Source: a virus. Taken from it: a DNA stretch of 64,000 nt. Of this stretch, positions 111-45,000 are shown in pieces. The translations under genes were made by a program, and so were the position numbers. Numbering within the stretch: position 1 is the first letter of the stretch; every line of letters begins with the position of its first letter. A model generated the notes under the pieces. That model did not search any database. It was given only the letters and a program-made list of their open reading frames with translations, and was not told the DNA's origin. The DNA lies in the IMG/VR virus record IMGVR_UViG_3300036985_006427, positions 1 through 64,000 of that record; one strand, written 5' to 3'.

Positions 111-596
111 ATGAGAAAATGTCGCAAGTGCAAAATAAATGAAGTTATAGAAACTAGAAAATTCTGCAGTGACTGCAAAATACAATCAAAAAATTGTATA
201 TGTGGTAAAGCATTTAAGTCTAAAAAACATAACTATTGTCCTAGATGTAGAACATCTAAAGGTGACAATGAGAAATGCTATGTTTGCGATGAATTCAGAT
301 TTATTTATGCTCAGGGGTGTTGCACAACCTGCTATAGATTTTTAACTAAATATAAAGTTACACCAAATGAATTACTTGAACTGCGCAAAATTTTAAACTG
401 TCAATTGTGCGGAATTGAGGTGTCTCATCATGTAGGAAATGGAAAGGGCAGAGCTGTGATAGATCACTGTCATGAAACTGGTAACGTCAGGGGGATTTTA
501 TGCAATCATTGTAATATAATTGAAGGAATGATAAGGAACGTTGACCACCTAGAAAATTTCTATAAAAATTATAAAAGATGGGTAGATCATGCCTGA
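111..596 (+). CDS. Recombination endonuclease VII-like nuclease with N-terminal zinc-knuckle array
   Basis: The C-terminal half carries the phage endonuclease VII (T4 gp49-type, His-Me finger) signature: a CQLCG knuckle, then DHCHETGNVRGILCNHCN followed by an EG pair, matching the T4 order of zinc CxxC, D-H-x-H catalytic segment, RG-x-LC and CNxCN. Family members resolve branched DNA such as Holliday junctions before packaging. The first ~100 residues are odd: they hold a series of CxxC pairs (CRKC, CSDC, CPRC, CYVC, CTTC) that suggest extra zinc ribbons not present in T4 gp49. Length is 161 residues, close to gp49. A GGAG lies just upstream of the ATG, and the last 8 nt overlap the next gene. 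It could instead act as a free-standing HNH homing-type nuclease, since this family includes such members. Confidence 0.85.
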   Translation: MRKCRKCKINEVIETRKFCSDCKIQSKNCICGKAFKSKKHNYCPRCRTSKGDNEKCYVCDEFRFIYAQGCCTTCYRFLTKYKVTPNELLELRKILNCQLCGIEVSHHVGNGKGRAVIDHCHETGNVRGILCNHCNIIEGMIRNVDHLENFYKNYKRWVDHA

Positions 597-2889
597 ATGT
601 CAATGTGAAAATGCCGGTTGGTGTGATTTATTCAAAAAAGAAATGACGTATGATCCTCCAAACTGGCAGTGGTGCAAATCACTGTCAGAGGATCAGCGTC
701 GTGACTATTTCAATAAAATGGAAAGCACTGTGAGGGTTTTAAAAAAAGCTCCAGACAAAAAAAAAGCTGACATCGTAAATTTCTTTGATATTCTACCTGA
801 AAAAAAAAGTAAATATGCTGTGTGCGTCATTCCAGCGAATGATTCGGCAATGGAATTGCTTGATATCACACGAGCTGGAGTAAAGAAGTATGCGGAAAAA
901 TGTGGTGCTGATTACATAGAGTTGTCCGGAGATCAAAACCCAAATTGGCCTATGTCAAATAAATATAGACTAAACAGGGTAGCAAAAGCGTATGACAAAA
1001 CATTATATTTAGATTGTGACATTGTCGTAAAGGATGATGCTCCGAATATATTTGAGCTAACACCAGATGATAAAATATCTGCATATGATGAATATGAGAT
1101 TTTTAAACAAAGAAATGACACTGCATGGATCAGAAACCAACAAGAGCATATCTTTATCACCACGCTAGACTCCTTTTCTGACGACATAAAAGAAGAGTAT
1201 ATAACAAATGGTGAATTCATAACGGAATCAATGATAAATGGTGGCGTTCTTGTCATACCAAACGCTTTAGCAGATTATTATAAACAACCAAGCAGTCCAT
1301 ATACTAAATTTTGGTGTTTTGATCAACATCTTTTAACCTTGGAGCTTCCAGAGGAAAAATTTAATAATCTTACTTACAAATTTAATTGTGAATATGAAGG
1401 AAATGATTTTTGGAATTTCGTAAATAATTCTCATTTTATTCACTTCAACGGACTCAAGAATAAACCTGACCTTAGAAAAAGTCTATTAAATCAATTTAAC
1501 CTTGGAGACTTTACTCCGATTAGTGCAGATCTGACTGTTGTTATCCCTTGCCACAATTACGCCCGATATCTGGGCGAATGTCTACAGTCGGTAGCTGATT
1601 CGTCGAAGCTTCCTGTTCGCGTAATTATTATTGATGATGCGAGCGATGACGATCCTCAAACGGTATGCATGGAATATTTCCTTTCACACAAATTCGAATA
1701 CCGTCGTGTAGAATTCCGTGATGTTCATCAGGTGCGTAGATTCGGATTATCACTTGTCGAAACAAAATACGTCCTTTTTTTGGACGCCGACAACACGTTG
1801 AATCCCGGCTATTTGCAGCACTGTGTTCAAAGACTTGAAAGGGACAGAAACGCGGCGTTTGTCTTTCCTATGCTCTTGGCTTTTGATGGCGGTGCGGGCT
1901 TCTTGCATGAAATTAATCTAGCCCCCAATATAGTCCAGTGGAAGGACATTGAAATGCGGAACTTGTGCGATGCCGCATGTGTTCATCGGACGGAAGTTTT
2001 GAGAAGCTCCTTGGCTCTGAAGGGCGATATATCAACTACTTGCATGGCACAAGATTGGCGAATGGCCAGAACCATTCTCCGCGCTGGTTCTTGGCATGGG
2101 CTGAAATCTGAAATTCCTCTGAATTATCGTATTCATTCGGATCAAATGACGACGCAGCCATCAAAATCAGTCTGGATTGGCTCGGATCTGGAACATGAAA
2201 TTGTAACGATCATCGTCGCATTCTCCGGCAGGTGGGATGTGTGGCTAAAACTGAAAGAATGGATTGTCAGTCAGTCATGGCCTGCCGAACAAACAAGACT
2301 TATGATTCTGAATTCCACTCATTCGGCTTTGTCTGTGGCTGATTTTGGGTTGGAAGCATTAAAGCTCTCTGGGATTCAGATTGAGAGAATTGACGCCGGG
2401 AGACCTCTATTGGCGGATCTGGACCGTCGCCCTTCTCAATTGATCGGTAGAGAAGTGGAAGCAGCAGTTGCAGGGTTGTACAACCGGGCGATTCAGATGG
2501 CATTTGGCGAGTATATCTTTTTCTTGGAAGACGATGTTATTCCACTCAGGCCGGATGCGATTAAACAGTTGTTTCAGGGAATGGGAGCGCTGGTGGCGGC
2601 AGTTTCAGGGTTATATAAACATCGATATTTTGAAAACGCGGTGGCGTTTTATCTTCCGTTTACCGGCCAATTGTTCCCGATGACAGGGGTTGATTTTGAG
2701 AAAGTTGGGGGAACGGGATTTGGTTGTCTTTTAGCAAGAAGATCATTGCTGCTAAATTACTTGTTGTCTGGCGATGATATTAGACATCCTCATTATGATG
2801 TTGATGTTTCAGTAAGGGTGGCGAAAGATGGTTGGGAATGGTGGTTAGACAGGACGGTGAAATGTGACCATTTGATAAATGTTGATTAA
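589..2889 (+). CDS. Three-domain glycosyltransferase (GT8-like, GT2, GT2-like)
   Basis: Residues 1-50 form a Cys/Trp-rich cap (CQCENAGWC then WQWC). Residues ~75-300 resemble a GT8-like sugar transferase, with a DxD in YLDCDIVVKDD and a following NGGVLVIP segment. Residues ~310-510 are a GT2 domain beginning LTVVIPCHNYARYLGECLQS, with IIDDASDDD and the metal-binding FLDADNTL. Residues ~540-766 look like a second GT-A domain with FLEDDVIPL. Such multidomain enzymes usually add several sugars to one glycan; substrates cannot be read from sequence. Base composition changes at about nt 1510: the first domain is AT-rich, while the GT2 domains use many more G/C-ending codons, suggesting fusion with DNA from a different source. 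The start overlaps the endonuclease VII stop by 8 nt. Confidence 0.85.
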   Translation: MPECQCENAGWCDLFKKEMTYDPPNWQWCKSLSEDQRRDYFNKMESTVRVLKKAPDKKKADIVNFFDILPEKKSKYAVCVIPANDSAMELLDITRAGVKKYAEKCGADYIELSGDQNPNWPMSNKYRLNRVAKAYDKTLYLDCDIVVKDDAPNIFELTPDDKISAYDEYEIFKQRNDTAWIRNQQEHIFITTLDSFSDDIKEEYITNGEFITESMINGGVLVIPNALADYYKQPSSPYTKFWCFDQHLLTLELPEEKFNNLTYKFNCEYEGNDFWNFVNNSHFIHFNGLKNKPDLRKSLLNQFNLGDFTPISADLTVVIPCHNYARYLGECLQSVADSSKLPVRVIIIDDASDDDPQTVCMEYFLSHKFEYRRVEFRDVHQVRRFGLSLVETKYVLFLDADNTLNPGYLQHCVQRLERDRNAAFVFPMLLAFDGGAGFLHEINLAPNIVQWKDIEMRNLCDAACVHRTEVLRSSLALKGDISTTCMAQDWRMARTILRAGSWHGLKSEIPLNYRIHSDQMTTQPSKSVWIGSDLEHEIVTIIVAFSGRWDVWLKLKEWIVSQSWPAEQTRLMILNSTHSALSVADFGLEALKLSGIQIERIDAGRPLLADLDRRPSQLIGREVEAAVAGLYNRAIQMAFGEYIFFLEDDVIPLRPDAIKQLFQGMGALVAAVSGLYKHRYFENAVAFYLPFTGQLFPMTGVDFEKVGGTGFGCLLARRSLLLNYLLSGDDIRHPHYDVDVSVRVAKDGWEWWLDRTVKCDHLINVD

Positions 2890-4378: not shown

Positions 4379-5155
4379 TTAATTAATATTTAATTTTTTA
4401 TTTTTATCATAAATTTCATTAAATTTCTTGGTCATTTCGTGAAAATACGGAGTCACTAAGTGAGGATATGGGTAGTTAGTAAAGTCCGATTCTTCATACG
4501 TTGGTTTAGGTCCGTGAAAATGCAGTATCTTACTACCAATCTCTTCATTCCAATAAGGTTTATAGTTATATCGATAATCTAGACTTTCAATCTTGTCGTT
4601 GAAGAACAATATAATAGCGTCTTGGTCATAAACTTGAAACTTGAATAAGTTCGATGTAATAAAAAGGATAAATTCGTCGTATATCTGATTCATATTTCTC
4701 CAATTGATCCACATAACACCTGCATTGATTTCGGGTGGCACAAACTGTTTTGTGAATTCTCCAGCCACCATAAAATAATTAGGTGTTAGATTTTTTAATT
4801 CCGAAATGTCATCTAAAAATAGGACATCATTATCGGTATATAATACATAATCATCCTCAATGTTTAATTTCTCACATATCTTGGGGATATCCACCCTTAA
4901 GAAAGTTCCGAAGGCGATTGTATCATCTTTATAGTGGATTTTTAATTCATCGTAAAATAATGATCTATGACTTATTATTGTAACGCCTAACTCAATTAAT
5001 TGCTCAATAGATTCGTCAATATCACCATCTAAAATTAGATGTGGTTTGATGTTAGGGTTAGTTTCTTTTGCAGATAAAACTGCGACGGTATACATCTTAA
5101 TATAATTTGAATACAATTTTTTATTGTGACTATTAACTCCTGAAAACCAATACAT
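4379..5155 (-). CDS. GT8-like glycosyltransferase, lone minus-strand gene
   Basis: The 258-residue protein opens with MYWFSGVNSHNKKLYSNYIK and carries the GT8-type core DYVLYTDNDVLFLDDISEL (~100-118), with the DxD in YTDND, then INAGVMWIN and KILHFHGPKP, matching the C-terminal HxxGxxKP-like metal-binding motif of the family. It is a complete single-domain enzyme. An AGGAGC ribosome-binding sequence precedes the ATG. It is the only minus-strand gene within the first 26 kb, convergent with the upstream GT2 and divergent from the polymerase genes, so it must have its own promoter. This suggests separate acquisition or regulation. Confidence 0.85.
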   Translation of the reverse strand: MYWFSGVNSHNKKLYSNYIKMYTVAVLSAKETNPNIKPHLILDGDIDESIEQLIELGVTIISHRSLFYDELKIHYKDDTIAFGTFLRVDIPKICEKLNIEDDYVLYTDNDVLFLDDISELKNLTPNYFMVAGEFTKQFVPPEINAGVMWINWRNMNQIYDEFILFITSNLFKFQVYDQDAIILFFNDKIESLDYRYNYKPYWNEEIGSKILHFHGPKPTYEESDFTNYPYPHLVTPYFHEMTKKFNEIYDKNKKLNIN

Positions 5156-5208
5156 AATATTAAGCTCCTGTTGAAACCAAATTTTGAACCAAATAACATT
5201 CCCAATGT

Positions 5209-5214
5209 ATTATA
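5209..5214 (-). promoter_or_regulatory. Possible -10 element for the minus-strand glycosyltransferase
   Basis: Reading the minus strand, a perfect TATAAT lies about 54 nt before the start codon at 5155, in the divergent 167-nt intergenic region. No good -35 hexamer is seen 17 nt upstream, so this is a weak call based on the -10 match and the need for a promoter there. Confidence 0.3.
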
Positions 5215-5269
5215 CTCATTTCTTTTTGATTAAAATGAAAAGAATTTGAATGCAAAAAATCGAATAGCT

Positions 5270-5278
5270 TGCTATAAT
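5270..5278 (+). promoter_or_regulatory. Extended -10 promoter for the polymerase cassette
   Basis: The sequence TGCTATAAT is a perfect extended -10 (TGn plus TATAAT), located 45 nt before the dnaE-N start. There is no strong -35, as is common for extended -10 promoters. The -10 sits inside a short palindrome (GCTATAATAGC). The rest of the 5156-5322 gap holds the opposite-strand gene's leader and a GAAAGG ribosome-binding site at 5309-5314. No tRNA is visible in this gap. Confidence 0.5.
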
Positions 5279-5322
5279 AGCATAGCGAACTGTCTTTGAG
5301 TTTAAAAGATTGAAAGGTTTTT

Positions 5323-6960
5323 ATGAAATGGTTTCCGTTACTGAATTACACACACTATTCTTTGCAGTATGGTTTCTCAAGACCCAAAGAGCTTGCTAAA
5401 AAATGTAAAGAGAATTCCTATCCAGCGTGTGGGATAGCTGACTACAAGTCAATTTCCGGAGCCGTGTCTTTCTACAAAGCCTGTGTAGACAACGATATCA
5501 AGCCTATCATTGGATGTTCATTCGATGACTTTTCCGTTTTCGCCAAGAATAAAAACGGATGGCTTGAGTTGATACAGATCGTATCGTCGATAGATGAAGA
5601 TGGCTCTTACGATCCTTCTTTGCTGATTCAGCTTGGTAAAAATGGAAACTTGATTTGCGTAGCTTCGAAAGAAGTTTCATCGCCAATCAATGGTGATGAT
5701 TTTTACGCTTGGTCTGAGTCTTTCACAAAAACGTTTTATGTAAACAAAGATCAAGCTGAATTGCATAGAATTCTTCTTTGTTCAGCGAACAAAACAACCC
5801 TTCCTCAGGTAAAGAAAGAGCTGGCATCAAACAAATGCCAATCGATCAAGAATTGGCAATTCTTCACCTCTGATGATTTCTATCTCAAAGCAAAGAATGA
5901 GATATCACACATTTTGGTGAATGATGCTCGTGTCGATGATTTTCAAGAGATTTTTGATAAATGCGAAAACTATAATATTCTCAATCAACCGATGTTGCCC
6001 ACGTTCGCTACTCCAAACGGAGAGTCTGAAAAAGACTTCTTGAAAACATTGGCAAGAGAAGGTTGGAAAGAGCTATTGAACGACAAAATCAAAAACGTTG
6101 ATGAACGTACCGTTTATGGCGACAGGTTTCGCAGAGAATATGAAGTTATCGAGAAAGCAAATCTCTTTGGATATTTCCTTATCGTTTGGGATATTTTAAA
6201 CTATTGTCGCAGTCAAGGATGGATGGTTGGTCCCGGAAGAGGGTCAGCAGCAGGCTGCTTGATATCTTATTTGATTGGTATCACGCAAATTGATCCAATT
6301 GAATTTGACCTTTTGTTTGAAAGATTCTATAATGCTGGACGAAACACAGAGGGTCACATCTCTTTGCCAGATATTGACATGGACGTTCCGGGAGAAAAAC
6401 GTGATGAAATCATCGCTTACCTAAAAGACAAGTACACAAACACCAATGTTAGTCAAATGTTAACCTTTGGAAGACTTCAAGGCAGAAGTGCCATCAAAGA
6501 AGTATTGAGAGTAAACAACGCCTGTGGTTTTAGCGAAATGAATGAAATCACAAGATACATTCCAAATGAAGCTGATATCTCGGATCAATTGGCAGAAATG
6601 GATGAAGAAGATCGATCTATTATTCGTTGGTCTTTGATAAATAACGCCAAAGAATTGAGAGATTATTGCTACATTTCAGAAGAAGGAGAACTCAAAGGAG
6701 ATTATGCCGTTTATTTTCAGCAAGCAATAGATATTGAGGGAACATTCAAAACCCAAAGCAAACATGCTGCTGGAGTTGTTATATCAGCAGAACCTCTTCA
6801 TAAAGTATGCCCAATGGTGAACCAAAAAAACGGATCTGAAAAGATAGCCGGTTTGGAAATGTCTGATCTAGAAGCTTTAGGACACGTCAAATTCGACGTT
6901 CTGGGTCTCAATTTACTGGATAAAATAATGAAAATCAAGGAGCTAATCAATGAATCGTGA
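5323..6960 (+). CDS. dnaE-N: DNA polymerase III alpha subunit, N-terminal half (PHP-like and palm)
   Basis: This is the catalytic half of a bacterial C-family replicative polymerase. Residues 1-~200 are a PHP-like domain (GFSRPKELAKKCKENSYPAC; VSFYKACVDNDIKPIIG), but the metal ligands are missing: the usual HxH is LxY and the TDH triad is ADY. The palm follows, with GPGRGSAAG (~303-311), PDIDMD (~349-354) and VKFDVLGL with D525. These supply the three catalytic aspartates known from E. coli DnaE. The ORF stops soon after LGL, where E. coli DnaE continues without a break into the fingers. The remainder is a separate gene at 7653-9218. No intein motifs are seen at the end. The stop overlaps the start of the exonuclease gene by 11 nt. 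Confidence 0.95.
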   Translation: MKWFPLLNYTHYSLQYGFSRPKELAKKCKENSYPACGIADYKSISGAVSFYKACVDNDIKPIIGCSFDDFSVFAKNKNGWLELIQIVSSIDEDGSYDPSLLIQLGKNGNLICVASKEVSSPINGDDFYAWSESFTKTFYVNKDQAELHRILLCSANKTTLPQVKKELASNKCQSIKNWQFFTSDDFYLKAKNEISHILVNDARVDDFQEIFDKCENYNILNQPMLPTFATPNGESEKDFLKTLAREGWKELLNDKIKNVDERTVYGDRFRREYEVIEKANLFGYFLIVWDILNYCRSQGWMVGPGRGSAAGCLISYLIGITQIDPIEFDLLFERFYNAGRNTEGHISLPDIDMDVPGEKRDEIIAYLKDKYTNTNVSQMLTFGRLQGRSAIKEVLRVNNACGFSEMNEITRYIPNEADISDQLAEMDEEDRSIIRWSLINNAKELRDYCYISEEGELKGDYAVYFQQAIDIEGTFKTQSKHAAGVVISAEPLHKVCPMVNQKNGSEKIAGLEMSDLEALGHVKFDVLGLNLLDKIMKIKELINES

Positions 6961-7627
6961 TATCATCGTGTTCGACTTTGAAACGGGTGGTCGCAACCCA
7001 CACAAATGTCAACCAACTCAAATAGCTGCTGTAGCTCTTGATGGTAGAAATTTTAAACTAAAAGGAACCTTCAATAGCTTGATGAGACCAATCATCGACG
7101 ATGAAGCTGCTATTGCAGCAGGAGTAGGTCCGCTAGAAGAAGAAGCGTTAAAAATCACCAGACAGACACGAGAGGTGTTGGCCAAAGCACCATTGCCCAA
7201 AGCTGTTTGGAAGAAGTTCGCAAACTTTGTGAACAAGTACAATTGGAAAGGCACACCGTTTTTTGCTCCTATTCCTTGTGGTTTCAACATCAACGGGTAT
7301 GATATGCACATTGTGAACAGACTGTGCCAACAATATGGACCGTGGGATGAAGTGCGACTGCAACAAAAGTTATTTCATCAAATCTATAAAATAGATGTCA
7401 TGGATGACGTTTGGCTATGGACAGAAAGTGATCCAGAAGTTAAATCCATCAGCATGGACGCTCTCAGAAAAAGAATGGGTCTTTCTACTGAAAACGCTCA
7501 CGACGCACTGCAAGACGTTAAAGATACAGCCAATATTTTTATAAAACTACAAAAGTCAAGACGTGCAGTATACAGAAATATGAAATTTGATAACGCCTTT
7601 GTTGACGGCGATTTGTTTATTGTGTGA
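6950..7627 (+). CDS. DEDDh 3'-5' exonuclease (DnaQ/RNase T type)
   Basis: The protein has the DEDDh exonuclease signature in order: D9 and E11 in VFDFETGG, D118 in INGYDMH, and H184/D189 in HDALQDVKDT. It is 225 residues, close to the 243 of E. coli DnaQ. The family removes mispaired 3' ends and proofreads replication. Its position between the two halves of polymerase III alpha, overlapping the first by 11 nt and 25 nt before the second, strongly suggests that it is the proofreading subunit of the phage polymerase. In Bacillus PolC a related exonuclease domain lies inside the polymerase chain; here it is an independent gene between two polymerase genes. Confidence 0.93.
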   Translation: MNRDIIVFDFETGGRNPHKCQPTQIAAVALDGRNFKLKGTFNSLMRPIIDDEAAIAAGVGPLEEEALKITRQTREVLAKAPLPKAVWKKFANFVNKYNWKGTPFFAPIPCGFNINGYDMHIVNRLCQQYGPWDEVRLQQKLFHQIYKIDVMDDVWLWTESDPEVKSISMDALRKRMGLSTENAHDALQDVKDTANIFIKLQKSRRAVYRNMKFDNAFVDGDLFIV

Positions 7628-7652
7628 ATAACCATTATATATTGAGGTTTGA

Positions 7653-9218
7653 ATGATCGACAGAGATGACCCTGAGGCTTGGAGTCTATACAAAAACGGT
7701 TTGACAAAAGGGATTTTTCAATTAGAAAGTAATCATGGTCGCAATTGGTCTAAAAAGTTGGCTCCGGAAAACATAGAAGAACTTTCAGCATTGATAGCAC
7801 TTTTAAGACCGGGGTGTACCAAGGCTATCATCGACGGAAAGTCAATGACACAAAGGTTCGTTGACCGAAAACACAAAAGGGAAGAAGTTTCATATCTACA
7901 TGCATCGCTTGAAGATATTTTAAAACCAACTTATGGGGTTTTAGTTTATCAAGAACAAGCGATGCGTATTGCTGTAAAGTTAGCTGGTTTCAACGAAACA
8001 GAAACGGACAACCTTCGCAAGGCTATTGGTAAAAAGAAGGCTGATTTGATGGCCTCGATTCGAAACGATTTTATCGCTGGATGTAAAAACGTAGGACTTG
8101 TAGACGAAGAAACAGCCAAAGAAATTTTTGGATGGATTGAAAAGTCTTCCAGATATTCGTTCAATAAATCACACGCAGTAGCCTATGCGTTTGACTCTTA
8201 TTGGTCAGCTTGGTACAAGGCTCATCACACAAAAGAGTTTTTCCTGTCTTACTTGTTCTATGCTAATGAAAAACAAGATCCTCATCAAGAAATTTATGAG
8301 CTGGTCAATGAAGCTAAACTATTCAACATAGAAGTAAAGATTCCTAAACTAAGTGGGTTTTCTACTAAATTCTGTATTACAAATGACGGCATTTGTTTTG
8401 GAATAAAAGATATCAAAAGCTTGACTGGTGTGACTGGCGACAAAGTCATTCAGGCTATCGGTCAAGCAGTGGATGAAATCAAAAAGCAACCGTCAGAATT
8501 TACTTGGCTGGATGTCCTCGTTTATTTATCTCCAAAGATTAATTCTACAGCATTCAAAGCTTTGTGTGCTATTGGTTTCTTTTCTACAAAATCCACAGGT
8601 GTCACCAGAAATCAAGCTATCTATGAATATTTGATATTTAAAGAACTAACCAAGAACGAAGTGCAATGGGTCTTCGAAAATCAAGCAAAAAGACAATGGC
8701 AAAAGCTTTACGAATGTTTCAATGATTTGGCTCCAACCAAGAAAAACGGAGGAGGAGCAAGCAATGTGAATCGCAATCAGATCATATTGAATGAACTGAA
8801 CATGCTGAAAAATCCACCGTACGATCTGAAAGATGATCCAGCGTGGATTGTTGATCAAGAAACCAAGATGCTTGGATGTCCAATTTCTCTTTCAAAGATA
8901 GACGCTGTAGATACGTCTGTAGCAAACGCTACGTGCAAGGATATTGTGAATGGAAGAAAGGGTAAAAACATTTGCCTTGTAGCAAATGTTCAGCGTGTAT
9001 CTAATCATAAGATAAACAAAGCAAACAGCAAACAAAGGGGAAGGGTCATGTCTTTTCTGACGATAGAAGACGCTACATGCAGTTTAGACAGTGTGGTCGT
9101 ATTTCCAGATGTCAGAGACGTATACCATTTTATTCTTTATGAAGGAAACAATCTTATGCTTTGCGGAGAAGTTGATAAGGATAATTCGTTTATTGTAGAA
9201 AAAATTCATGAAATTTGA
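7653..9218 (+). CDS. dnaE-C: DNA polymerase III alpha subunit, C-terminal half (fingers to OB fold)
   Basis: The ORF begins exactly where DnaE-N leaves off: residues 5-26 (DDPEAWSLYKNGLTKGIFQL) align with the E. coli DnaE segment leading to VFQLES. Then come ALIALLRPG, the fingers motif YGVLVYQEQAM, LRKAIGKKK, and SFNKSHAVAYAF (~169-180). The last ~90 residues look like an OB fold (GRVMSFLTIEDAT, FIVEKIHEI). Together the two halves make 1,066 residues, near the ~1,160 of E. coli DnaE. SFNKSHA is the site where cyanobacterial DnaE is split by an intein; here that site is intact and no intein is present. A GAGG lies 7 nt before the ATG. The halves must associate non-covalently. Confidence 0.94.
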   Translation: MIDRDDPEAWSLYKNGLTKGIFQLESNHGRNWSKKLAPENIEELSALIALLRPGCTKAIIDGKSMTQRFVDRKHKREEVSYLHASLEDILKPTYGVLVYQEQAMRIAVKLAGFNETETDNLRKAIGKKKADLMASIRNDFIAGCKNVGLVDEETAKEIFGWIEKSSRYSFNKSHAVAYAFDSYWSAWYKAHHTKEFFLSYLFYANEKQDPHQEIYELVNEAKLFNIEVKIPKLSGFSTKFCITNDGICFGIKDIKSLTGVTGDKVIQAIGQAVDEIKKQPSEFTWLDVLVYLSPKINSTAFKALCAIGFFSTKSTGVTRNQAIYEYLIFKELTKNEVQWVFENQAKRQWQKLYECFNDLAPTKKNGGGASNVNRNQIILNELNMLKNPPYDLKDDPAWIVDQETKMLGCPISLSKIDAVDTSVANATCKDIVNGRKGKNICLVANVQRVSNHKINKANSKQRGRVMSFLTIEDATCSLDSVVVFPDVRDVYHFILYEGNNLMLCGEVDKDNSFIVEKIHEI

Positions 9219-9317: not shown

Positions 9318-11006
9318 ATGAGAAAAAAAAGGATATTGTTTTGTAGTGAAGCCACTTTCCTAAACACTGGCTACGCTACTTACACTCGTGAAATTTTAAA
9401 TTACTTACATTCAACCGGAAAATATGAGCTGGCTGAAATGTCCAGTTATGGTCAAAGAAATGACCCAAGAGCTGCCGATATTCCTTGGAAGTATTATGGT
9501 GTTCAGCCAAACACAGAGTATGAGCCAAAAGCTTCACAGCAAGAGATTGAGGCTTACCACGGAGCTGGAACAAACCAATTTGGTGAATTTATATTTGAAC
9601 ACGTTTGTCTAGATTTTATGCCAGACATTGTCTGCGACATCAGAGACTTCTGGATGTTAGACTTTGCAGAACGCAGCCCTTTTCGCCCATTCTTTAATTG
9701 GGTGATCATGCCAACGGTTGACGCTAGACCTCAAGCTCGCCAATGGATTTCTACATACTCTGGAGCAGATGGAGTTCTGACCTATTCTGATTGGGCTGGT
9801 GAAGTTTTGCTCAACCAATCAGGAGGCAAGATGAAGTACTGGGGTTCTTCTCCACCTTCTGCTCATCCAGCCTATAAGCCAGTGCAAGACAAAAAGCTTC
9901 ACAAGCTTTCTATGGGTCTTAATCCTGATTATAAAATAATAGGCACTGTGATGCGCAATCAGCGTCGTAAATTATATCCAGATTTATTTGAAGCATTTCG
10001 AAAATTTCTTGACAAGGCAAACAATAAGAATTACTATCTTTATTGTCACACGTCTTATCCAGACTTGGGATGGGATATTCCAGAATTGCTTTTACAAAAC
10101 GATTTATCTTCACACGTTTTGTTTACGTACATCTGTCAACAAACCAAAAAGCCATTTCCATCGTTGTTCAGGGGTGCTGTAGCTCAATCCCCTTACACTG
10201 GAAAATGGAACGCAACATTATCGAATGTTAAAACTGGAGCTTCATACGAAGAGCTATCAAATATCCAAAATCTATTTGATTTATACACTCAGTATGCTAA
10301 CTGTGAAGGTTTTGGTCTTCCGTATGTAGAAGCTGCGGCTTGTGGTGTTCCTGTTTGCGGAACAGATTATTCTGCTATGGAGAGTGAAATAAGAAAGCTG
10401 GAAGGTTATCCAATCAAACCGGCAGCACTCTACAAGGAACTGGAAACAGGATGTTTGCGAGCAGTTCCAGACAATGATTTAGCAGCAGAATATTTCTTAG
10501 AATTCTTTGAAAAGTTCACCGATGAAGAACGAGAAGAAATTGGCAAACGCACTCGTTCCAATTTTGAAAAATACTTTCAATGGCATCTGAGCGGATCTAA
10601 GTGGGAAAATATTTTTGATTCTTTGCCAATCAAGCCAATAGAACAAACTTGGGCTTCTGCACCTAGAATTTTAGAACCAGACCCTAAACCAAGCGAAGAA
10701 ACTATCAATCAAGTAGAATCAACAAAGCTTGCTAGGTTTTTGATTGCAAACGTATTGAAAGATCCCAACAAATTAAATTCATTCTTTGAATCTAGATTGA
10801 CAAGAGATTTGACATACAAGCAAACCACTGGTTCTACCGGAGGAATGTATTTCAATGAATCCTCTCAAGCTTTTGACGGCATGAATCATAGACATAATTT
10901 TGATTTTCACGCAGCTTACAATCAAATGGTCATGCAACGAAATAAAATAAATCAGTGGGAACAACGCAGAGTAGAAGTTATGAAACAAAGAGGTGTAATA
11001 CAATGA
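9318..11006 (+). CDS. GT4/GT-B family glycosyltransferase
   Basis: The N-terminal domain opens KKRILFCSEATFLNTGYATY, typical of the acceptor-side Rossmann fold of GT-B enzymes. The C-terminal domain has the family hallmark CEGFGLPYVEAAACGVPVCG at ~329-348, with its EGFGxxxxEAxACGxP pattern that binds the sugar nucleotide. At 562 residues it is longer than most GT4 enzymes. The last ~110 residues (from SKLARFLIAN-type helical sequence onward) have no recognisable domain and contain a low-complexity asparagine/histidine stretch. It shares an ATGA overlap with the epimerase gene that follows, so the two are translationally coupled. Confidence 0.88.
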   Translation: MRKKRILFCSEATFLNTGYATYTREILNYLHSTGKYELAEMSSYGQRNDPRAADIPWKYYGVQPNTEYEPKASQQEIEAYHGAGTNQFGEFIFEHVCLDFMPDIVCDIRDFWMLDFAERSPFRPFFNWVIMPTVDARPQARQWISTYSGADGVLTYSDWAGEVLLNQSGGKMKYWGSSPPSAHPAYKPVQDKKLHKLSMGLNPDYKIIGTVMRNQRRKLYPDLFEAFRKFLDKANNKNYYLYCHTSYPDLGWDIPELLLQNDLSSHVLFTYICQQTKKPFPSLFRGAVAQSPYTGKWNATLSNVKTGASYEELSNIQNLFDLYTQYANCEGFGLPYVEAAACGVPVCGTDYSAMESEIRKLEGYPIKPAALYKELETGCLRAVPDNDLAAEYFLEFFEKFTDEEREEIGKRTRSNFEKYFQWHLSGSKWENIFDSLPIKPIEQTWASAPRILEPDPKPSEETINQVESTKLARFLIANVLKDPNKLNSFFESRLTRDLTYKQTTGSTGGMYFNESSQAFDGMNHRHNFDFHAAYNQMVMQRNKINQWEQRRVEVMKQRGVIQ

Positions 11007-22423: not shown

Positions 22424-22546
22424 ATGGTTTTGAATTTTAAGGCTATTTTAGACACTTTGGGCGACAGAATAATTGCATACGACTTTTTCGATAACGAAAG
22501 GTTTGTCAGAGATGCAATGGCTATTAAAATAAAGGCAGTATCATGA
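22424..22546 (+). CDS. Small 40-residue ORF coupled to the fucosyltransferase
   Basis: The ORF encodes a 40-residue peptide beginning MVLNFKAILDTLGDRIIAYD. A GAGGA lies about 11 nt before the ATG, and its TGA overlaps the fucosyltransferase ATG in an ATGA, the same arrangement used by real genes here. It has no family I recognise. It could be a leader peptide that couples translation, or the last piece of a lost gene. The 22386-22423 stretch before it holds nothing else visible. Confidence 0.4.
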   Translation: MVLNFKAILDTLGDRIIAYDFFDNERFVRDAMAIKIKAVS

Positions 22547-23286
22547 TAATATCTAAAATAATGGGTGGTCTAGGAAATCAAATGTTCCAATATGCCTATG
22601 GAAAATATTTATCAAGCAAAACAAACAGTGATCTAACCTTAGATCTGACATTTTTTCAATCTGGAAATCAAGATTCACCTGTGATTCGAGAGTATGATTT
22701 ACACGTTTTTAAAAACATCAAATGTAAAACTACTATAAATAGTAAAAATTGCATAGAGGGGTTTTTTCAAAGATACGATTACGTTACAGAGATAAGAGAA
22801 TTATTATTAAATGATTTTGAAATAGATCTAGAACCAAACCACCAAGAAATATTCAACGAGATTTCCAGTAGCAACTCTATCTGTATGCATGTTCGAAGAG
22901 GGGATTACGTAACCTTTGCAAGGGCTGCTGATTTTCATGGTTTTATTGGAAATGAATATTTTGAACTAGCGATCAAAGATATCGTGAATGAAGTAAATGA
23001 TCCACGGTTTTTTGTGTTTTCAGATGATATAGACTGGTGTCAAGAGAATATTAAAACTGGATGCCCTACAAAATTCATGACAAAAGAATATAATGGGTTG
23101 GGAGATTACTCTCATCTAAAATTGATGTCTGCGTGTAAACACTTCATCCTTACAAATAGTACATTTGGATGGTGGGGAGCTTGGATGTCAAATAACCCAG
23201 ACAAAATAGTCTACGCTCCAAAAAAATGGTTTACTTCAAGTTCTGAACCTGAAGGTTTGATACCAAACGAGTGGAGAAGAATATGA
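22543..23286 (+). CDS. Alpha-1,2-fucosyltransferase (GT11)
   Basis: The GT11 signatures are all present: IMGGLGNQMFQYAYGKYLSS (residues ~5-24), the donor-binding HVRRGDYV (H116, R118, D121), DDIDWCQENI, and HFILTNSTFGWWGAWMS (~200-216). These enzymes transfer L-fucose from GDP-fucose in alpha-1,2 linkage, usually onto galactose. At 247 residues it is shorter than the usual ~290 but no motif is missing. GDP-fucose synthase lies 73 nt downstream, so the phage encodes both donor-making and donor-using steps. Confidence 0.92.
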   Translation: MIISKIMGGLGNQMFQYAYGKYLSSKTNSDLTLDLTFFQSGNQDSPVIREYDLHVFKNIKCKTTINSKNCIEGFFQRYDYVTEIRELLLNDFEIDLEPNHQEIFNEISSSNSICMHVRRGDYVTFARAADFHGFIGNEYFELAIKDIVNEVNDPRFFVFSDDIDWCQENIKTGCPTKFMTKEYNGLGDYSHLKLMSACKHFILTNSTFGWWGAWMSNNPDKIVYAPKKWFTSSSEPEGLIPNEWRRI

Positions 23287-23359: not shown

Positions 23360-24289
23360 ATGAAAGTTTTATTGACTGGTGGTACTGGATTCTTGGGAAA
23401 AAATCTGCAAAGATATTTTCAAAACGATAAGCATTACGATGTAGTGGCACTGTCTAGCGAAATGTACGATCTGCGTTTCGGAGAGGCTTGCAGAAGAGCT
23501 ATCGAGGATCATGCGCCAAATGTCATCATTCACGCTGCCGGAAGCGTAGGAGGCATTCTGGCGAATCAGCAGAACCCCGGAAAGTTCATGTATGATAATC
23601 TAGCTATGGGTATGAACATGCTCGAACAAGCTAGGGTTTACCAAGAAACGCATACTCCATTAAAGTTCGTTATGCTTGGAACGGTTTGTGCGTACCCAAA
23701 GTACACCCTTGTTCCTTTTCGGGAATCAGAACTGTGGAATGGATATCCTGAAGAAACAAACGCTCCATACGGAATCGCCAAAAAGACACTCATGAAGCTT
23801 GGCGAAACTTACCATCAGCAATACAAAATGGACGTTGTGAATCTTGTGCCTGTGAACATGTACGGGCCACACGATCATTTTAATCTAACAAGTTCTCATG
23901 TTATTCCAGCACTGATACTAAAATTTCATGAGGCAATAAAAAACAATCAAGACGTGACTGTATGGGGAAGTGGCAAAGCGTCAAGAGAATTTTTATATGC
24001 TCCAGATTGTGCTGAAGCCATCAAGCTGGCTATCGAAAGCAATGTAGGACCAGAACCAATAAACATTGGAACTGGAAAAGAAATAAGGATCTCAGACCTT
24101 GTGGAAGAAATTGCCCTTCAAATGAATTTTAATGGTTCGATCATTTTAGATTCTACGAAACCTGATGGTCAACCAAGAAGATGTTTAGATACGACTCTTG
24201 CTGAAAAGCGATTGGGCTTTAAAGCTAAAACTGATTTTCAAACCGGATTAAAACAAACTATTCAATGGTTCTTGGGAGAACAAAGATGA
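23360..24289 (+). CDS. fcl: GDP-L-fucose synthase
   Basis: This extended short-chain dehydrogenase has the NADP-binding TGGTGFLGKNL (residues 6-16), HAAGSVGGILANQQNPGKFM (the GGI-N family hallmark), LGTVCAYPK, and catalytic YGIAK (Y137, K141), followed by VPVNMYGPHDHFNLTSSHVI, strongly matching GDP-fucose synthases (Fcl/WcaG). The enzyme converts GDP-4-keto-6-deoxymannose to GDP-L-fucose by epimerisation and reduction. GDP-mannose 4,6-dehydratase, which makes the substrate, is not in this window and may come from elsewhere in the phage or the host. The 73-nt gap before it holds no clear signal beyond GGAG near the start. It ends in an ATGA overlap. Confidence 0.92.
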   Translation: MKVLLTGGTGFLGKNLQRYFQNDKHYDVVALSSEMYDLRFGEACRRAIEDHAPNVIIHAAGSVGGILANQQNPGKFMYDNLAMGMNMLEQARVYQETHTPLKFVMLGTVCAYPKYTLVPFRESELWNGYPEETNAPYGIAKKTLMKLGETYHQQYKMDVVNLVPVNMYGPHDHFNLTSSHVIPALILKFHEAIKNNQDVTVWGSGKASREFLYAPDCAEAIKLAIESNVGPEPINIGTGKEIRISDLVEEIALQMNFNGSIILDSTKPDGQPRRCLDTTLAEKRLGFKAKTDFQTGLKQTIQWFLGEQR

Positions 24290-39092: not shown

Positions 39093-42000
39093 TTAATATC
39101 CTCTTACTCTTAAATTAAGAGCATTCGTTGTCTGAGTACTCGTCAGTGATAAATTCAAGGATTCTGAACTCTGCCCACTTGGAGCAGAGATAAACAGAGA
39201 TAATCCAGAAGGGTTCTCTCCGCTAGCAATCCCTAAAACACCAAAGTTATACAATCCTAATGTATTATACACATTTGCTCGATCTGGCCCCAACAACGAT
39301 AGGTTCATATCTCCAGACATAGCGACTGGTCTTCCGGAGGTTATCAAGTTGAATGAATTGTTGATTTCTGTACCCGGAAACAGTTCAAACTTTATGTTAT
39401 CGATGTATGGTCTATGAGCCACAAAACCCTTTGTTGATGGGTCAAAACCAGAAGCTTCTAAGAAAATGTCTCCATTTTTATTGCTAAACACTATGCCTGA
39501 AACTACATATTCTAATGAATCTCCAGATGAATTCTGGTACACCCTTAGGCCAACCCTGTCTGTTGATCCAGACTCTTGTTTGTTTCCAAACACATGAGCG
39601 TCTATCCAACCTCCGCTATTTTGTATAGAAGGAATCTGTTGTCTTAAAACACAGTCGAAGGTATAAGCAGCTCCAGCATTATTTAAACCTTTTGTTGGAT
39701 GATCTCCACTCGTTGGCCAATCGTGATTTGGAGAACCAGCAATCAATGTATAATCACTATCTCCTCTAAGTGGCCTATCTATACAAACGGAGGCTCCAAA
39801 GTTGTCATTGTCTGAACCACTAGCCGCCAATATTCCGGTTGTTAATGCGGTTTGAACTCTAGACTTGTAACCTACGGCAAGCATCTTTTCAGCAAATATC
39901 CATCTTTGTGTTCTTTCATTGAAGTTGACCATTTCGTTTCTATAGTTATAAACAGCACCATTGTTTAGAGTCATTGTTCCGCTGTTGTTGCCAAATGTAT
40001 TTACTCTGATTCCGGAATCGGCTAAATCGTAGAATGAATGTTTTGGAATATCAAACTTGGCGTCAAAACTCTTTCTCTGGAAGGCTGTAGATCCACTGTA
40101 GATATGGTGATGTAAAGTTTCAAACGAATGATTTGGAGCGCCCACAACGGCCATGTCGTAAGCTATATCAACTGAAAATCCAAATCTATCTCCACGGCGA
40201 GCGTATTCTGATATAAATGAAGAATCGTTTATTTGATGTGGACCTCTCAAACTTGTTAATTTCTGAGATGGAGTTGGAGAGAAATCGTAGATGCCAACAT
40301 TTATGCTGTTTGGCTTTATCTTTTGTTTGAACTCCCAAGGTAGAAACTCTTCTATTACATTTTTACCATTGTTTGTTTTCTCGAATATGAATGCAGCTCC
40401 AGCGCCTCCGTCTGCGCCTATTCTTATTCCAGATCTAGTTGCATCGTTTTTGATTTCATGCCACTGAACAATTCCACTGACACCGCTTATAGCTCCTTCT
40501 GAATGAAATGCGTTGTATGGTGTTCCAACTATAATTTTTCCATTGTCTATAGCGACAGAGTATCCGAATAAATCTCCCGGACATCCAGAGTTGAATAAAT
40601 CATAATCAAGATAGTCTGCGTTAGCTATCTTCATAAGCTCATTCAATCCGCCTCCGATACCGGCATCAACTATAAAGCTTCTGTTTGAATTTTTATCTAA
40701 TCCTAACAGGATATCATAATCGGTATAAATACCTCCATTGTAGGTTACAATATCCAAGAAGTCTCCACTGAACCTAGGGTACATTCCATATTTAGTGATA
40801 ACTTCATCGTTAAAGAAGCTTTTGGATCTTTGTTCCATTTCTTCTGAAGTTTTAAGTTCTGGTGGTCTAGATAGAGTTGTAGGATCGTACGTATCCTCGT
40901 TGTCAGAATAGTTGTTCAAATTACCAGCAACACCATTTCCTCCCCAAAGTCTAGAAGGAATCAAAGTAGCGCCAATAGCCTGACCGCTAACCGCAGCATA
41001 TTTAGCCGGAGAGCCTCGTTCAGGAGCGCGTAATTTCTGAGAAAGTTCCCAGTTTCTGCCTTCTTTTATTAGGGCAGTATCGTAAACCCCTCCTGATTGT
41101 AGTCTTCCTGCCCCGTTACCAATGTTGATGGTTTCGCCAGTATCGTTTGGACTCGGAGGATATAGATTTCTAACAAAGCTTTGGTTGCCAGTTATAGTCG
41201 TTGATCTATAATGAGGGCATTGACCTTGAAGCAAAGTTGAGTCTGCTATTAAAATGATTTTTGATCTTCTCTTGCCATTCTGGAACGATGAGAAGTTTTC
41301 AAACTCTTCTGCCACAATGACTGGTCCATCTTCTATCAATTCTTCAGCCCAGCTTTCAGACGCAGAAATACACTCATCTGTTGTGAAATTGTTTTCATCA
41401 CAGTAAATGGAACTCTTGTGTTTGACTGGTCTAGAAACACCCGGAACTACTCCGCTAGCTGCTGGATTCACAGCGTACCGGAAGTTGAATTGAACTGGAA
41501 GTCCATCGTTTATCAAACCGCTGGTTGTTATAGCATTGATTTCAGTAATGATTGGAAGCAACGCTCCAGAGATAGACAGCATTCTAGGAGTTTTAGGAGG
41601 CAATGAAATGCCTTCTAATTCTTTGACATCTATAAAACTAGACCATTTACTTGTTTGAAAAGTTATTCCAAACTCATCTATGTTGCTATTTGATTCTGTT
41701 CTAAATTCAAAAATGGTTTCCTGAGGAATATAGGTCGTTGTTTTGGTTAGCTCTCCAACGCTTCCACAGGCGAACGAAGGCAAACCTACGGGCGTATCAA
41801 ATATTAGATTTCCACTATGATTCGCGCATATTTTAAATTTTTCATCTGGAGACTCAGAGACCCAATTTATCCATACTCTGTATCCAGATCCGGGTAAAAT
41901 AGGGAAAGTAACAGCGCCTGCCCCGTTAATCTGCCAAGTGTTTTTAGCTCCATACACTTTATAGGTTTGTTTTATCTCTGGCAAGAAAGATAGTATTCTT

Positions 42001-45000
42001 TCAAAATCCTGCCCTCCTGATAATGGCACAAAGTTTGTTCTGCTTGCGTATGAAAACTCTTCACTTTGAGATGCAACGCTAATTGTAGCTGTGTTTGGAT
42101 GGAAATCTATTCCACTGAGACTTGTAGAGGTTTTGTAACTAGGATATGTGAAGTGATACCCATCATCACAACCGCTGATGCTGTCTGTTGCATAGTTTAT
42201 CAATTGTTTGTTGTCATTTTCTGTATATCTGCTCAACTTGTCTGACAAGTAATACTTGCCAAGTTTTGGTAAGTACATTGGCTTGCTTGTCATTCTCAGG
42301 CCACTGCAAAGATATGTAATATTATCAGATATTTCTTGAGCGGTACTATCTTTTACAGCACTGTAAGTTATAATTATCTTCTTGTTGCCAAAGTCAAGCC
42401 AGTCGTTTAGCGTCATTAAATCTTCACTCGAAGGTTTTCCAGACGGAAACGCCAACCACACAAAGTCTATGGAGCCGTTGACATATCTCATTTCACTGTT
42501 TTCTGTGAAAAATCCGCCATCAGGAAAAAATTCAACGTTTAATTTATTTGCTAAATTATGACCAGAGGCAGAATTTCCAGAAGAGTCATAAGCGTTCTTG
42601 AGAGATGTTCTTCCTGTAAAGCCATTTATCTGCAAACCCTTTGGGGCATACAAGCAATCTTTACGGATCATATTTATATAAAACTCTGTATTCTTATCTT
42701 TATTCAACGTGGCGTAACTAAGACCACGGCTAGCATCATCTTCACTCCACTGCGTAGCCAAGACATAAATGCGAGAATTATTAAATGATCCATCTGGTTT
42801 TCTTCCAGACTCCACAAGGGCTACTATCTGATCTGGGTAAACCGTTTCTGTGACATCAACAGCTTCAGATAAAATTTTACCAGCAGCTTGCATCAATCCG
42901 TCACGACCATTTTCAAGAGCAGGGTCGAACATATCTCCGTTATAATAAAATGAATTAAAGTTTCCACTAACAACCGATGGTCCATTTTCCATTATATGGA
43001 ACGCAAGTTCATTTATGTTGTTGGCAGCAAAAGATATCTTTTCTTCAAACTGCTTGTTGACTTTATAAACCTGTGGCTGAAAAGTATCCCATATCAATCC
43101 AGATGTAGCTGGATCGTACCAAGATGTTGGAGGCAAGTGTTCAGCGGTCGTCAAGACTGGCACGGGTTCTTCATTGCTTTTGTTGAACAACGATTGTGGA
43201 GGGCTATCACAATCGATAGTAAAGTTCTGGAACTGCAAAGGCCAGTTTTTATAATATGACACTACGCTACAAGTCTTTGGAGTTGTTTTTACGCACTGCT
43301 CTTTCCATTGGGCTCGTAAATCACCTACAATCCCTTTTAATGGAAATTCACATTTTGAATTTATAATTGGAGCAGGACCGTCACCGCAAGTAGCTCCTTC
43401 TGGGCAATTTAGATTTTCAAAAAATTCATCAAGATTATCTCTAGACAAATCTATACGAATATCGCCAACACCCTTGATATAATATTCTCCATGATGCTCA
43501 ATCGTTCTTCCAGTTGATCTATCTGGCAAGAAAGATTTAGTAGCATTGTATTTATTGCTAGAAACATCTTGTTGAGAAATGCATCCTTGAGCAGAATACT
43601 CAACATTACGCGCAGGATGTATTCTCATTCTGGAGCCTAATTTTTCCAGAATTTTGTTTACAATTTTATTTGAATCTTCATACAATCCATCTTCTTCCCA
43701 TACTGGGTCGTTGCCAACGATAACAAGATTTCTATCACCCAAAGACAACCAATCTTTGATGTTTTGAATAATTTCATCGCTTGCAGCATCTAGTTCTGGA
43801 GTGACAATAAACGCAAGACCAGCGTCTCTAGGAATTTCAATTTCAGAGAAATCAGTTCTTCTCCAAGATTTACCTTGATATCCAATCGTTCCGTTTGACC
43901 CAGAAGCGAAGATCAAAGGCCAATTAGAATTATCATAATAACCCAAAGCTCTTTCTTCAGGATGAGAAGATCTGTCAAGATTGCCAAACCTTCCAAACTC
44001 AACAACTTTGTTGTGAGGATAATATTTTCTGTTTTGGAATACTCTCACCGCTCCAGCATTTGTATATGAAGCCCAAGAGAGAATGTTATCACCCCAAACG
44101 TTAGCGTCTTCAAATTCGTTAAAGCAGTCTGTGGGTGCTCCGAACGCTACGGTTTCTCCGTCTTGGTCTACAGCACAGCTCCATCCGAGCCTCGACGTTG
44201 AAGCGAACGTAGATGGCAAGAACTGTCTGGTTCCTAAGTATTGAATATCATTGTGCCCATACTGATATGTCATTTTATAAGGGGTTGGCAGAGTTCCCCA
44301 GAAGTTGATATCATTTCTATATTCAAATCTTTCTGAGGATTGTATAAAGTCGTATGTAGACACTTTGGCTATAGCTTGTCCAGATTGAGACGCTATAGAA
44401 TCGTAATGACTGACAGCTTGCGGCTTGTTCGTGGAAACGCACCAGCTACGAATATTGTCGTAAACCTTCTGGGCTTCTTTTTCGTTTCGTTCAAAAATAT
44501 TACAAGATTTATCGTTCCACGGAGAACCGACTGCTACAACTTCTCCATTTTTACTTATAGAAACGGCGTGTCCAAACCTATCGTTGTATGTCTTGCTGTA
44601 TATCGAACCTAAACCATCCATACTGTCAAAGTTAAATTCTAACTTGTCGTTTGGAGACACAATGACTTGTATACAATTGAAAGTGTTTCTTTCTTTTTCA
44701 AATATATAAACTCTTCCGCCAGAGGCTGGTGGTACTTGAAATTCTGTTACAACAGACCCATGAGTAGAACCCCATTCTTGACCAACGCCACTTGCTATAA
44801 AGTTTCTGTTTAAAGTAGTGTTGGTGTATCCTGCGGACAATCTTCCGCTATCGAATGTATTTTCAAACAACTGCTTGCAAGTGGTATCCCATGTTTCAGA
44901 CTCTCCAGTGATCTTATTCAGATGACCACTTTGCGCAATGTTTTGGACAAGATCTTTGACTCCACTCGCATAAGAGTGAGCTAAATAAAACTTTTCAAAC

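What the first reader, a model, noticed from the sequence alone, without database searches (positions are those of the whole stretch)
5323..9218. Replicative DNA polymerase III alpha split into two genes with the proofreading exonuclease gene between them
The first ORF ends just after the third catalytic Asp (VKFDVLGL), and the third begins within the segment leading to GIFQLES, so almost nothing of the linker is missing. The break is not at the cyanobacterial split-intein site, which is intact in the second half. The DEDDh exonuclease is encoded exactly at the break, with an 11-nt overlap on one side and 25 nt on the other. This suggests a three-part holoenzyme core (palm, proofreader, fingers) assembled non-covalently, or an evolutionary step between DnaE-plus-DnaQ and fused PolC.
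Basis: partly seen in the sequence, partly recalled or inferred. Interest (0 to 1): 0.82.

Follow-up and report, generated by a model that had tools for sequence, protein, structure and literature searches.

The report
Phage replicative polymerase split around proofreader
In a large group of uncultured viruses, most likely bacteriophages, the gene for the main DNA-copying enzyme is broken into two genes with the proofreading-enzyme gene between them; the layout is real and conserved in more than 100 related viruses, so the enzyme almost certainly works as separate chains that assemble without being chemically joined.

Summary
The halves (545 and 521 aa) together cover DnaE except about 11 linker residues (E. 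coli alpha ~577-587) and the C-terminal tau-binding region. All catalytic residues are present. The DEDDh exonuclease lies in the gap (11-nt overlap, 25-nt spacer). It is no assembly error: 128 distinct loci all show N-half, exonuclease, C-half; none is fused; the two halves are under strong purifying selection (dN/dS 0.06, 0.04). No intein, intron or conserved frameshift was found that could rejoin the chains, so non-covalent assembly is the best explanation. No PolA or PolB was found in 14 records.

The split members form one clade, pointing to one ancient fission. Its deepest member is split too but carries other genes in the gap, so the exonuclease is not inherent to the break. Relatives carry inteins, split inteins and free-standing endonucleases in and around the same gene, so homing-element fracture is the likely but unproven origin. 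Basal members keep the PHP active site; the window's clade has lost it, fitting transfer of proofreading to the exonuclease. A PolC intermediate is not supported.

Function resembles the split PolB (gp43) of Aeromonas phages, in another polymerase family. New variant of a known kind.

The parts
5323..6960 (+). dnaE N-half: degenerate, shortened PHP domain plus the palm/thumb region with all three catalytic Asp (PDIDMD, KFD)
   Evidence: AF2 pLDDT 89.1, Foldseek best hits DnaE of M. tuberculosis, Taq, E. coli
6367..6384 (+). PDIDMD motif, first two catalytic Asp (residues 349-354)
   Evidence: Invariant P349 D350 D352 D354 in 31 sequences
6895..6897 (+). Third catalytic Asp, D525 of KFDVLGL
   Evidence: Invariant in 31 sequences
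5312..5317 (+). GAAAGG, Shine-Dalgarno-like, for the N-half
   Evidence: SD-like motif at 80/99 N starts against 0.14 at internal ATGs
6937..6942 (+). AAGGAG, Shine-Dalgarno-like, for the exonuclease, lying inside the N-half gene
   Evidence: 119/126 X starts against 0.13 background
6950..6960 (+). 11-nt overlap of N-half and exonuclease; possible translational coupling
   Evidence: short overlaps common in relatives, in more than one phase
6950..7627 (+). DEDDh 3'-5' exonuclease of the DnaQ/RNase_T superfamily (D9, E11, D118, H184, D189)
   Evidence: Pfam 3.3e-13; the five catalytic residues invariant in 32 sequences; PHROG 'DNA polymerase exonuclease subunit' 2e-28
7644..7647 (+). GAGG, weak Shine-Dalgarno-like, for the C-half
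   Evidence: 49/113 C starts against 0.14 background
7653..9218 (+). dnaE C-half: fingers plus OB domain, without the tau-binding C-terminal region
   Evidence: AF2 pLDDT 87.9, Foldseek hits Taq/M. tuberculosis/E. coli DnaE
7710..7730 (+). GIFQLES motif at the start of the fingers
   Evidence: Invariant G20, F22-S26
8160..8174 (+). FNKSH motif: intact here; site of a split intein in relatives L046 and L095

Best explanation
This is the replicase core of a group of tailed viruses, most likely bacteriophages. The DnaE-type polymerase is made as two polypeptides that meet at the palm/fingers boundary and assemble non-covalently into one active polymerase. Neither half should polymerise alone: the N-half has the metal-binding Asp, the C-half the fingers. 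The DEDDh protein encoded between them acts in trans as the proofreading (epsilon) subunit. Its start overlaps the N-half gene in most relatives without inserts, which suggests co-translation from one mRNA, and the C-half follows closely. The dnaE gene broke once in an ancestor of this clade, probably during invasion by homing endonucleases or inteins, which still infest the gene. The exonuclease settled in the gap early, and later the PHP active site decayed. Shown: gene structure, conservation, constraint, separate folding of the halves in prediction, no detectable rejoining mechanism, monophyly of the split among the sequences sampled. Inferred: physical assembly, proofreading by this exonuclease, the mobile-element origin, the order of events.
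For: 128 distinct loci in N-X-C order, 0 fusions. Only DnaE: one fingers match and no PolA or PolB match in 14 records, with controls ringing. Catalytic residues invariant. Purifying selection. Good models of each half alone. N tail after KFDVLGL 11-28 aa in the 116 loci matched, too short for an intein fragment. No Rfam intron in the window or five relatives. Overlap phases differ between relatives. N, X and C co-inherited, Mantel r 0.85-0.94. Split clade monophyletic, SH-aLRT 99-100; 75 of 80 DnaE loci from genome contigs intact. Inteins, split inteins and endonucleases in and beside the same gene in relatives. Precedent: phage 25 43A and 43B co-purify with polymerase activity (PMC2988022).
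Against: No complex was modelled and nothing is biochemical. The exonuclease has no C-terminal extension like the alpha-binding tail of E. coli epsilon. No intein scar or endonuclease remnant marks the break itself, so the mobile-element origin is circumstantial. Nearly all evidence comes from metagenomic contigs.
Confidence: 0.8

Rival explanations
1. The split is an assembly or sequencing error, or a decaying pseudogene.
For: None beyond the unusual ORF layout.
Against: Same break in 128 distinct loci from many metagenomes; dN/dS 0.04-0.10; own SD-like sites.
Confidence: 0.01
2. The halves are rejoined covalently, by a split intein, RNA splicing or programmed frameshifting through the exonuclease gene.
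For: Relatives L046 and L095 do carry split inteins elsewhere in the same gene.
Against: No intein-length tail at this break; no Rfam intron; the exonuclease frame relative to the N-half is not conserved and 50 of 128 loci have more than 40 nt between N stop and exonuclease start; the C-half opens directly after a stop codon.
Confidence: 0.03
3. The exonuclease is not the proofreader of this polymerase but an independent nuclease, or itself a passenger at an insertion hot spot.
For: Both flanks of the exonuclease gene are recurrent insertion sites for endonucleases and other cargo; L162 has the break without it.
Against: Present in all 128 loci, unlike the variable endonucleases (though loci were counted only if all three genes were found); catalytic residues invariant; co-inherited with both halves; PHP site degenerate in the window's clade; PHROG 'DNA polymerase exonuclease subunit'.
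Confidence: 0.15
4. The three-part layout is an evolutionary intermediate towards fused PolC.
For: PolC also combines DnaE-like parts with a DEDDh exonuclease.
Against: Halves are DnaE by a wide margin; PolC has its exonuclease in the PHP domain (own knowledge). PolC itself was not put in the trees.
Confidence: 0.02

Closest known systems
Split gene 43 (PolB polymerase) of Aeromonas phages 25 and 44RR (PMC2988022)
   Same: Phage replicative polymerase encoded as two polypeptides; those of phage 25 co-purify and have polymerase activity; homing endonuclease associated with the split.
   Different: PolB family; the gap holds a seg-type endonuclease or untranslated sequence, not a proofreading exonuclease.
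Split minimal Pol III alpha of group 2.2 jumbo phages (PMC7824862)
   Same: Pol III alpha in two separate phage proteins thought to reconstitute the enzyme.
   Different: There the genes are far apart, only core catalytic and template-binding parts remain, and a PolB is present; here PHP and OB are kept, the genes are neighbours and no PolB was found.
Split DnaE of Cbastvirus phages (Cellulophaga phi13:1, Tenacibaculum Larrie; GenBank)
   Same: DnaE in two adjacent phage genes.
   Different: Break before PDIDxD, inside the catalytic domain, with nothing between; separate clade with an intact sister in phage MA9V-3.
Cyanobacterial split-intein DnaE
   Same: DnaE in two genes.
   Different: There the genes are unlinked (own knowledge) and split-intein halves ligate the chains; here no intein at the break.
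'Fractured genes' with split inteins and free-standing endonucleases (Dassa et al. 2009, cited in PMC7090010)
   Same: Relatives L046 and L095 show this anatomy at other sites of the same dnaE.
   Different: At the finding's break there is no intein, and an exonuclease, not an endonuclease, lies between.
E. coli Pol III core (alpha, epsilon)
   Same: DnaE with a separate DEDDh proofreader.
   Different: Alpha is one chain; epsilon has an alpha-binding tail; tau-binding domain present.

Membership tests
DnaE (C-family DNA polymerase) | Palm with PDID.D and KFD catalytic Asp, fingers, OB domain | tested here: met
DnaE (C-family DNA polymerase) | Single polypeptide | tested here: not met
   Separate ORFs in all 128 loci
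DnaE (C-family DNA polymerase) | C-terminal tau-binding domain | tested here: not met
   C-half match to E. coli alpha stops near 1058-1064 of 1160 and the ORF ends about there
DnaE (C-family DNA polymerase) | Intact PHP active site (not required; E. coli lacks it) | tested here: not met
   THYS...ADYKS...GCSF in the window; H.H, TDHG, GCE kept in basal L061, L064 and L160; judged by eye
DnaQ / epsilon exonuclease | DEDDh residues | tested here: met
   D9, E11, D118, H184, D189 invariant in 32
DnaQ / epsilon exonuclease | Alpha-binding C-terminal tail / clamp motif | tested here: inconclusive
   Only ~35 aa after the last catalytic Asp; no evident motif by eye
PolC | Exonuclease inside the PHP domain of one chain; PolC-type sequence | tested here: not met
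Split-intein DnaE | Intein fragments at the break | tested here: not met
Fractured gene (split intein + endonuclease) | Split intein and endonuclease at the break | tested here: not met
   Not at this break; anatomy seen at other dnaE sites in L046 and L095
Minimal split Pol III alpha of jumbo phages | Distant genes, no PHP/OB, PolB present | tested here: not met
Non-covalent split polymerase (works like) | Halves bind and polymerise together | not testable with these tools
   Needs co-expression or complex modelling

The most novel reading that the evidence does not exclude
The exonuclease is a structural third subunit: co-translated between the halves, it binds at the palm/fingers seam and is needed to assemble or hold the split DnaE, making a true three-chain catalytic core with proofreading built into the joint.
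Probability: 0.2. Interest if true: 0.8.

Novelty: new variant of a known kind. Interest (0 to 1): 0.6.

Why it matters
A C-family replicative polymerase that apparently works as two non-covalent halves, with its proofreader encoded in the gap, is fixed across a diverse virus clade. It gives a natural split DnaE for dissecting which part of the enzyme does what, and a case where a gene broken (probably) by selfish elements became a stable operon. The basal member without the exonuclease at the break and the decay of the PHP site make the order fission, exonuclease settlement, PHP loss testable.

Tried and rejected
1) Assembly artefact: rejected. 2) Intein at the break: rejected. 3) Intron: no Rfam match. 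4) Programmed frameshift joining N and X: overlap phase not conserved. 5) PolC intermediate: rejected. 6) Lead that the gp41-1 split intein comes from this virus group, because L158 seems to encode a gp41-like helicase, IMPDH and NrdB: I used the intein sequence from memory and scanned; eight of the resulting records have no match to this C-half (that search had no positive control and some records are fragments), so I dropped it. 7) Other replicative polymerase: PF00476 and PF00136 none in 14 records. 8) Beta clamp (PF02768) and clamp-loader delta-prime (PF13177): none in 10 records; a T4-type clamp was not tested. 10) A three-chain complex could not be modelled with the tools given. 11) Literature: eight searches found no description of this arrangement, in an open-licence library only.

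Full report
Anatomy. Three + strand ORFs at 5323-6960, 6950-7627 and 7653-9218. The first holds a PHP domain and the Pol III alpha catalytic (Pfam 'NTPase') domain, the second an RNase_T/DEDDh exonuclease, the third the alpha fingers; NCBIfam and PHROGs agree. HMM alignments to solved DnaE put the end of the N-half near E. coli residue 576 and the start of the C-half near 588: about 11 linker residues are without counterpart. From my knowledge of the E. coli structure this is the palm/fingers boundary. The C-half ends after the OB domain, so the tau-binding region is missing. AlphaFold2 folds each half alone with mean pLDDT 89.1 and 87.9, and both match DnaE crystal and cryo-EM structures.

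It is not an artefact. Scans of IMG/VR with each protein gave many relatives. Among the loci where all three were found, 128 have distinct exonuclease sequences; all are in the order N-half, exonuclease, C-half and none has two of the three in one ORF. Against a relative at 96-98% identity dN/dS is 0.058, 0.095 and 0.036. The catalytic Asp of the polymerase and the five DEDDh residues are invariant in the alignments. SD-like sequences precede 119/126 exonuclease starts, 80/99 N-half starts and 49/113 C-half starts, against 0.13-0.14 at internal ATGs.

No rejoining mechanism was found. Tails after KFDVLGL are 11-28 aa in the 116 loci where the motif pattern matched, too short for an intein fragment. 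Rfam finds no intron in the window or in five relatives. The exonuclease frame relative to the N-half is not conserved, and 50 of 128 loci have more than 40 nt between N stop and exonuclease start. Non-covalent assembly therefore remains. It has a precedent: the split PolB genes 43A and 43B of Aeromonas phage 25 co-purify and have polymerase activity (PMC2988022).

It is probably the only replicative polymerase. Fourteen records of 97-174 kb (the window's own is 110 kb) each have exactly one fingers match and no PolA or PolB match, with controls ringing. A DnaB-family helicase is found in 11 of 14. In one relative (L158) the region upstream reads, by my own inspection of translations, as NrdB, MazG, PhoH, RecA/UvsX-like, DnaB-like helicase, IMPDH, primase and a Cas4-like nuclease before dnaE; apart from the helicase these names were not tested against families. 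The records are contigs of unknown completeness. The virus is a tailed virus by its terminase match; the host is unknown.

Evolution. In trees of joined halves with intact bacterial and phage DnaE, all split members fall on one side of a branch (SH-aLRT 99 and 100); 75 of 80 DnaE loci fetched from genome contigs are intact. Intact rows were chosen from search hits, so a closer intact sister may exist. The Cbastvirus phages have a different break, before PDIDxD, with an intact sister in phage MA9V-3, so that split is independent. The deepest split member, L162, has the same break but holds a DUF4326 gene and another small ORF there instead of the exonuclease; a DEDDh-like ORF lies about 10 kb upstream. 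So the exonuclease is not inherent to the break. N, X and C distances correlate (Mantel C-N 0.94, C-X 0.85, N-X 0.91), so where the exonuclease is present it has been inherited with the halves. Basal members L061, L064 and L160 keep PHP motifs (H.H, TDHG, GCE) while the window's clade reads THYS, ADYKS, GCSF, consistent with proofreading having passed to the exonuclease; E. coli alpha also has an inactive PHP.

Mobile elements. In L046 the N-half is interrupted after GPGRG and the C-half after FNK by intein N-fragments (Pfam Intein_splicing/Hint hits, most below the curated cut-offs), with a separate ORF and then a short C-fragment resuming at SAGG and SHAV; L095 shows the second. L016 has a contiguous intein with HNH at RPG|C. 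Both flanks of the exonuclease gene hold varying genes in other relatives, including an Endonuclease_7 group (8 loci), HNH_3 and others. Several of the remaining inserts were called endonuclease-like by eye only. This is the 'fractured gene' setting (Dassa et al. 2009, known to me through PMC7090010 and memory; the paper is not held). It makes homing-element invasion the likely cause of the break, but no scar at the break shows it.

Judgement. Works like: a split phage polymerase plus an epsilon-type proofreader (confidence 0.8 overall; proofreading role about 0.8; mobile-element origin about 0.5). Membership: DnaE by domains and residues, but not as a single chain. Novelty: new variant of a known kind; no description was found in the library searched.

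Noticed in passing
L046:772-3635 and 4985-7823; L095:8635-11521: Split inteins in dnaE halves (GPGRG|S and FNK|SHAV) with free-standing endonuclease-like ORFs between intein parts; the second is a few residues from the cyanobacterial DnaE split-intein site. Possible new trans-splicing inteins.
   Followed up: partly
L016:10331-12676: Contiguous intein with HNH domain at RPG|C in the C-half.
   Followed up: partly
L041:4289-6261; L042:8001-9960: A further break of the N-half before PDIDMD, the downstream piece gaining ~80 aa of unknown sequence; same place as the Cbastvirus split.
   Followed up: partly
L160, L162 (contigs of Lokiarchaeota MAGs), L161 (Flavobacteriales MAG): Virus-like contigs with this split dnaE; L160 and L162 share flanking genes with the viral contigs. 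Binned with archaeal or bacterial MAGs; mis-binning or true host not decided.
   Followed up: no
L195, L206: Patescibacteria-binned dnaE in two ORFs at other positions; frameshift or natural split not decided.
   Followed up: no
window 589-2889, 9318-11006, 22543-23286, 23360-24289: Glycosyltransferase and nucleotide-sugar epimerase genes around dnaE; a ~560-aa ORF (in the window a PHROG glycosyltransferase match) follows the C-half in several relatives.
   Followed up: partly
window 39093-51569 and 51574-59952 (-): Giant ORFs of 4158 and 2792 aa.
   Followed up: no
L038, L125, L131-L144 N-X gap: Small conserved ORF (~75 aa) between N-half and exonuclease in one subclade (10 loci).
   Followed up: no
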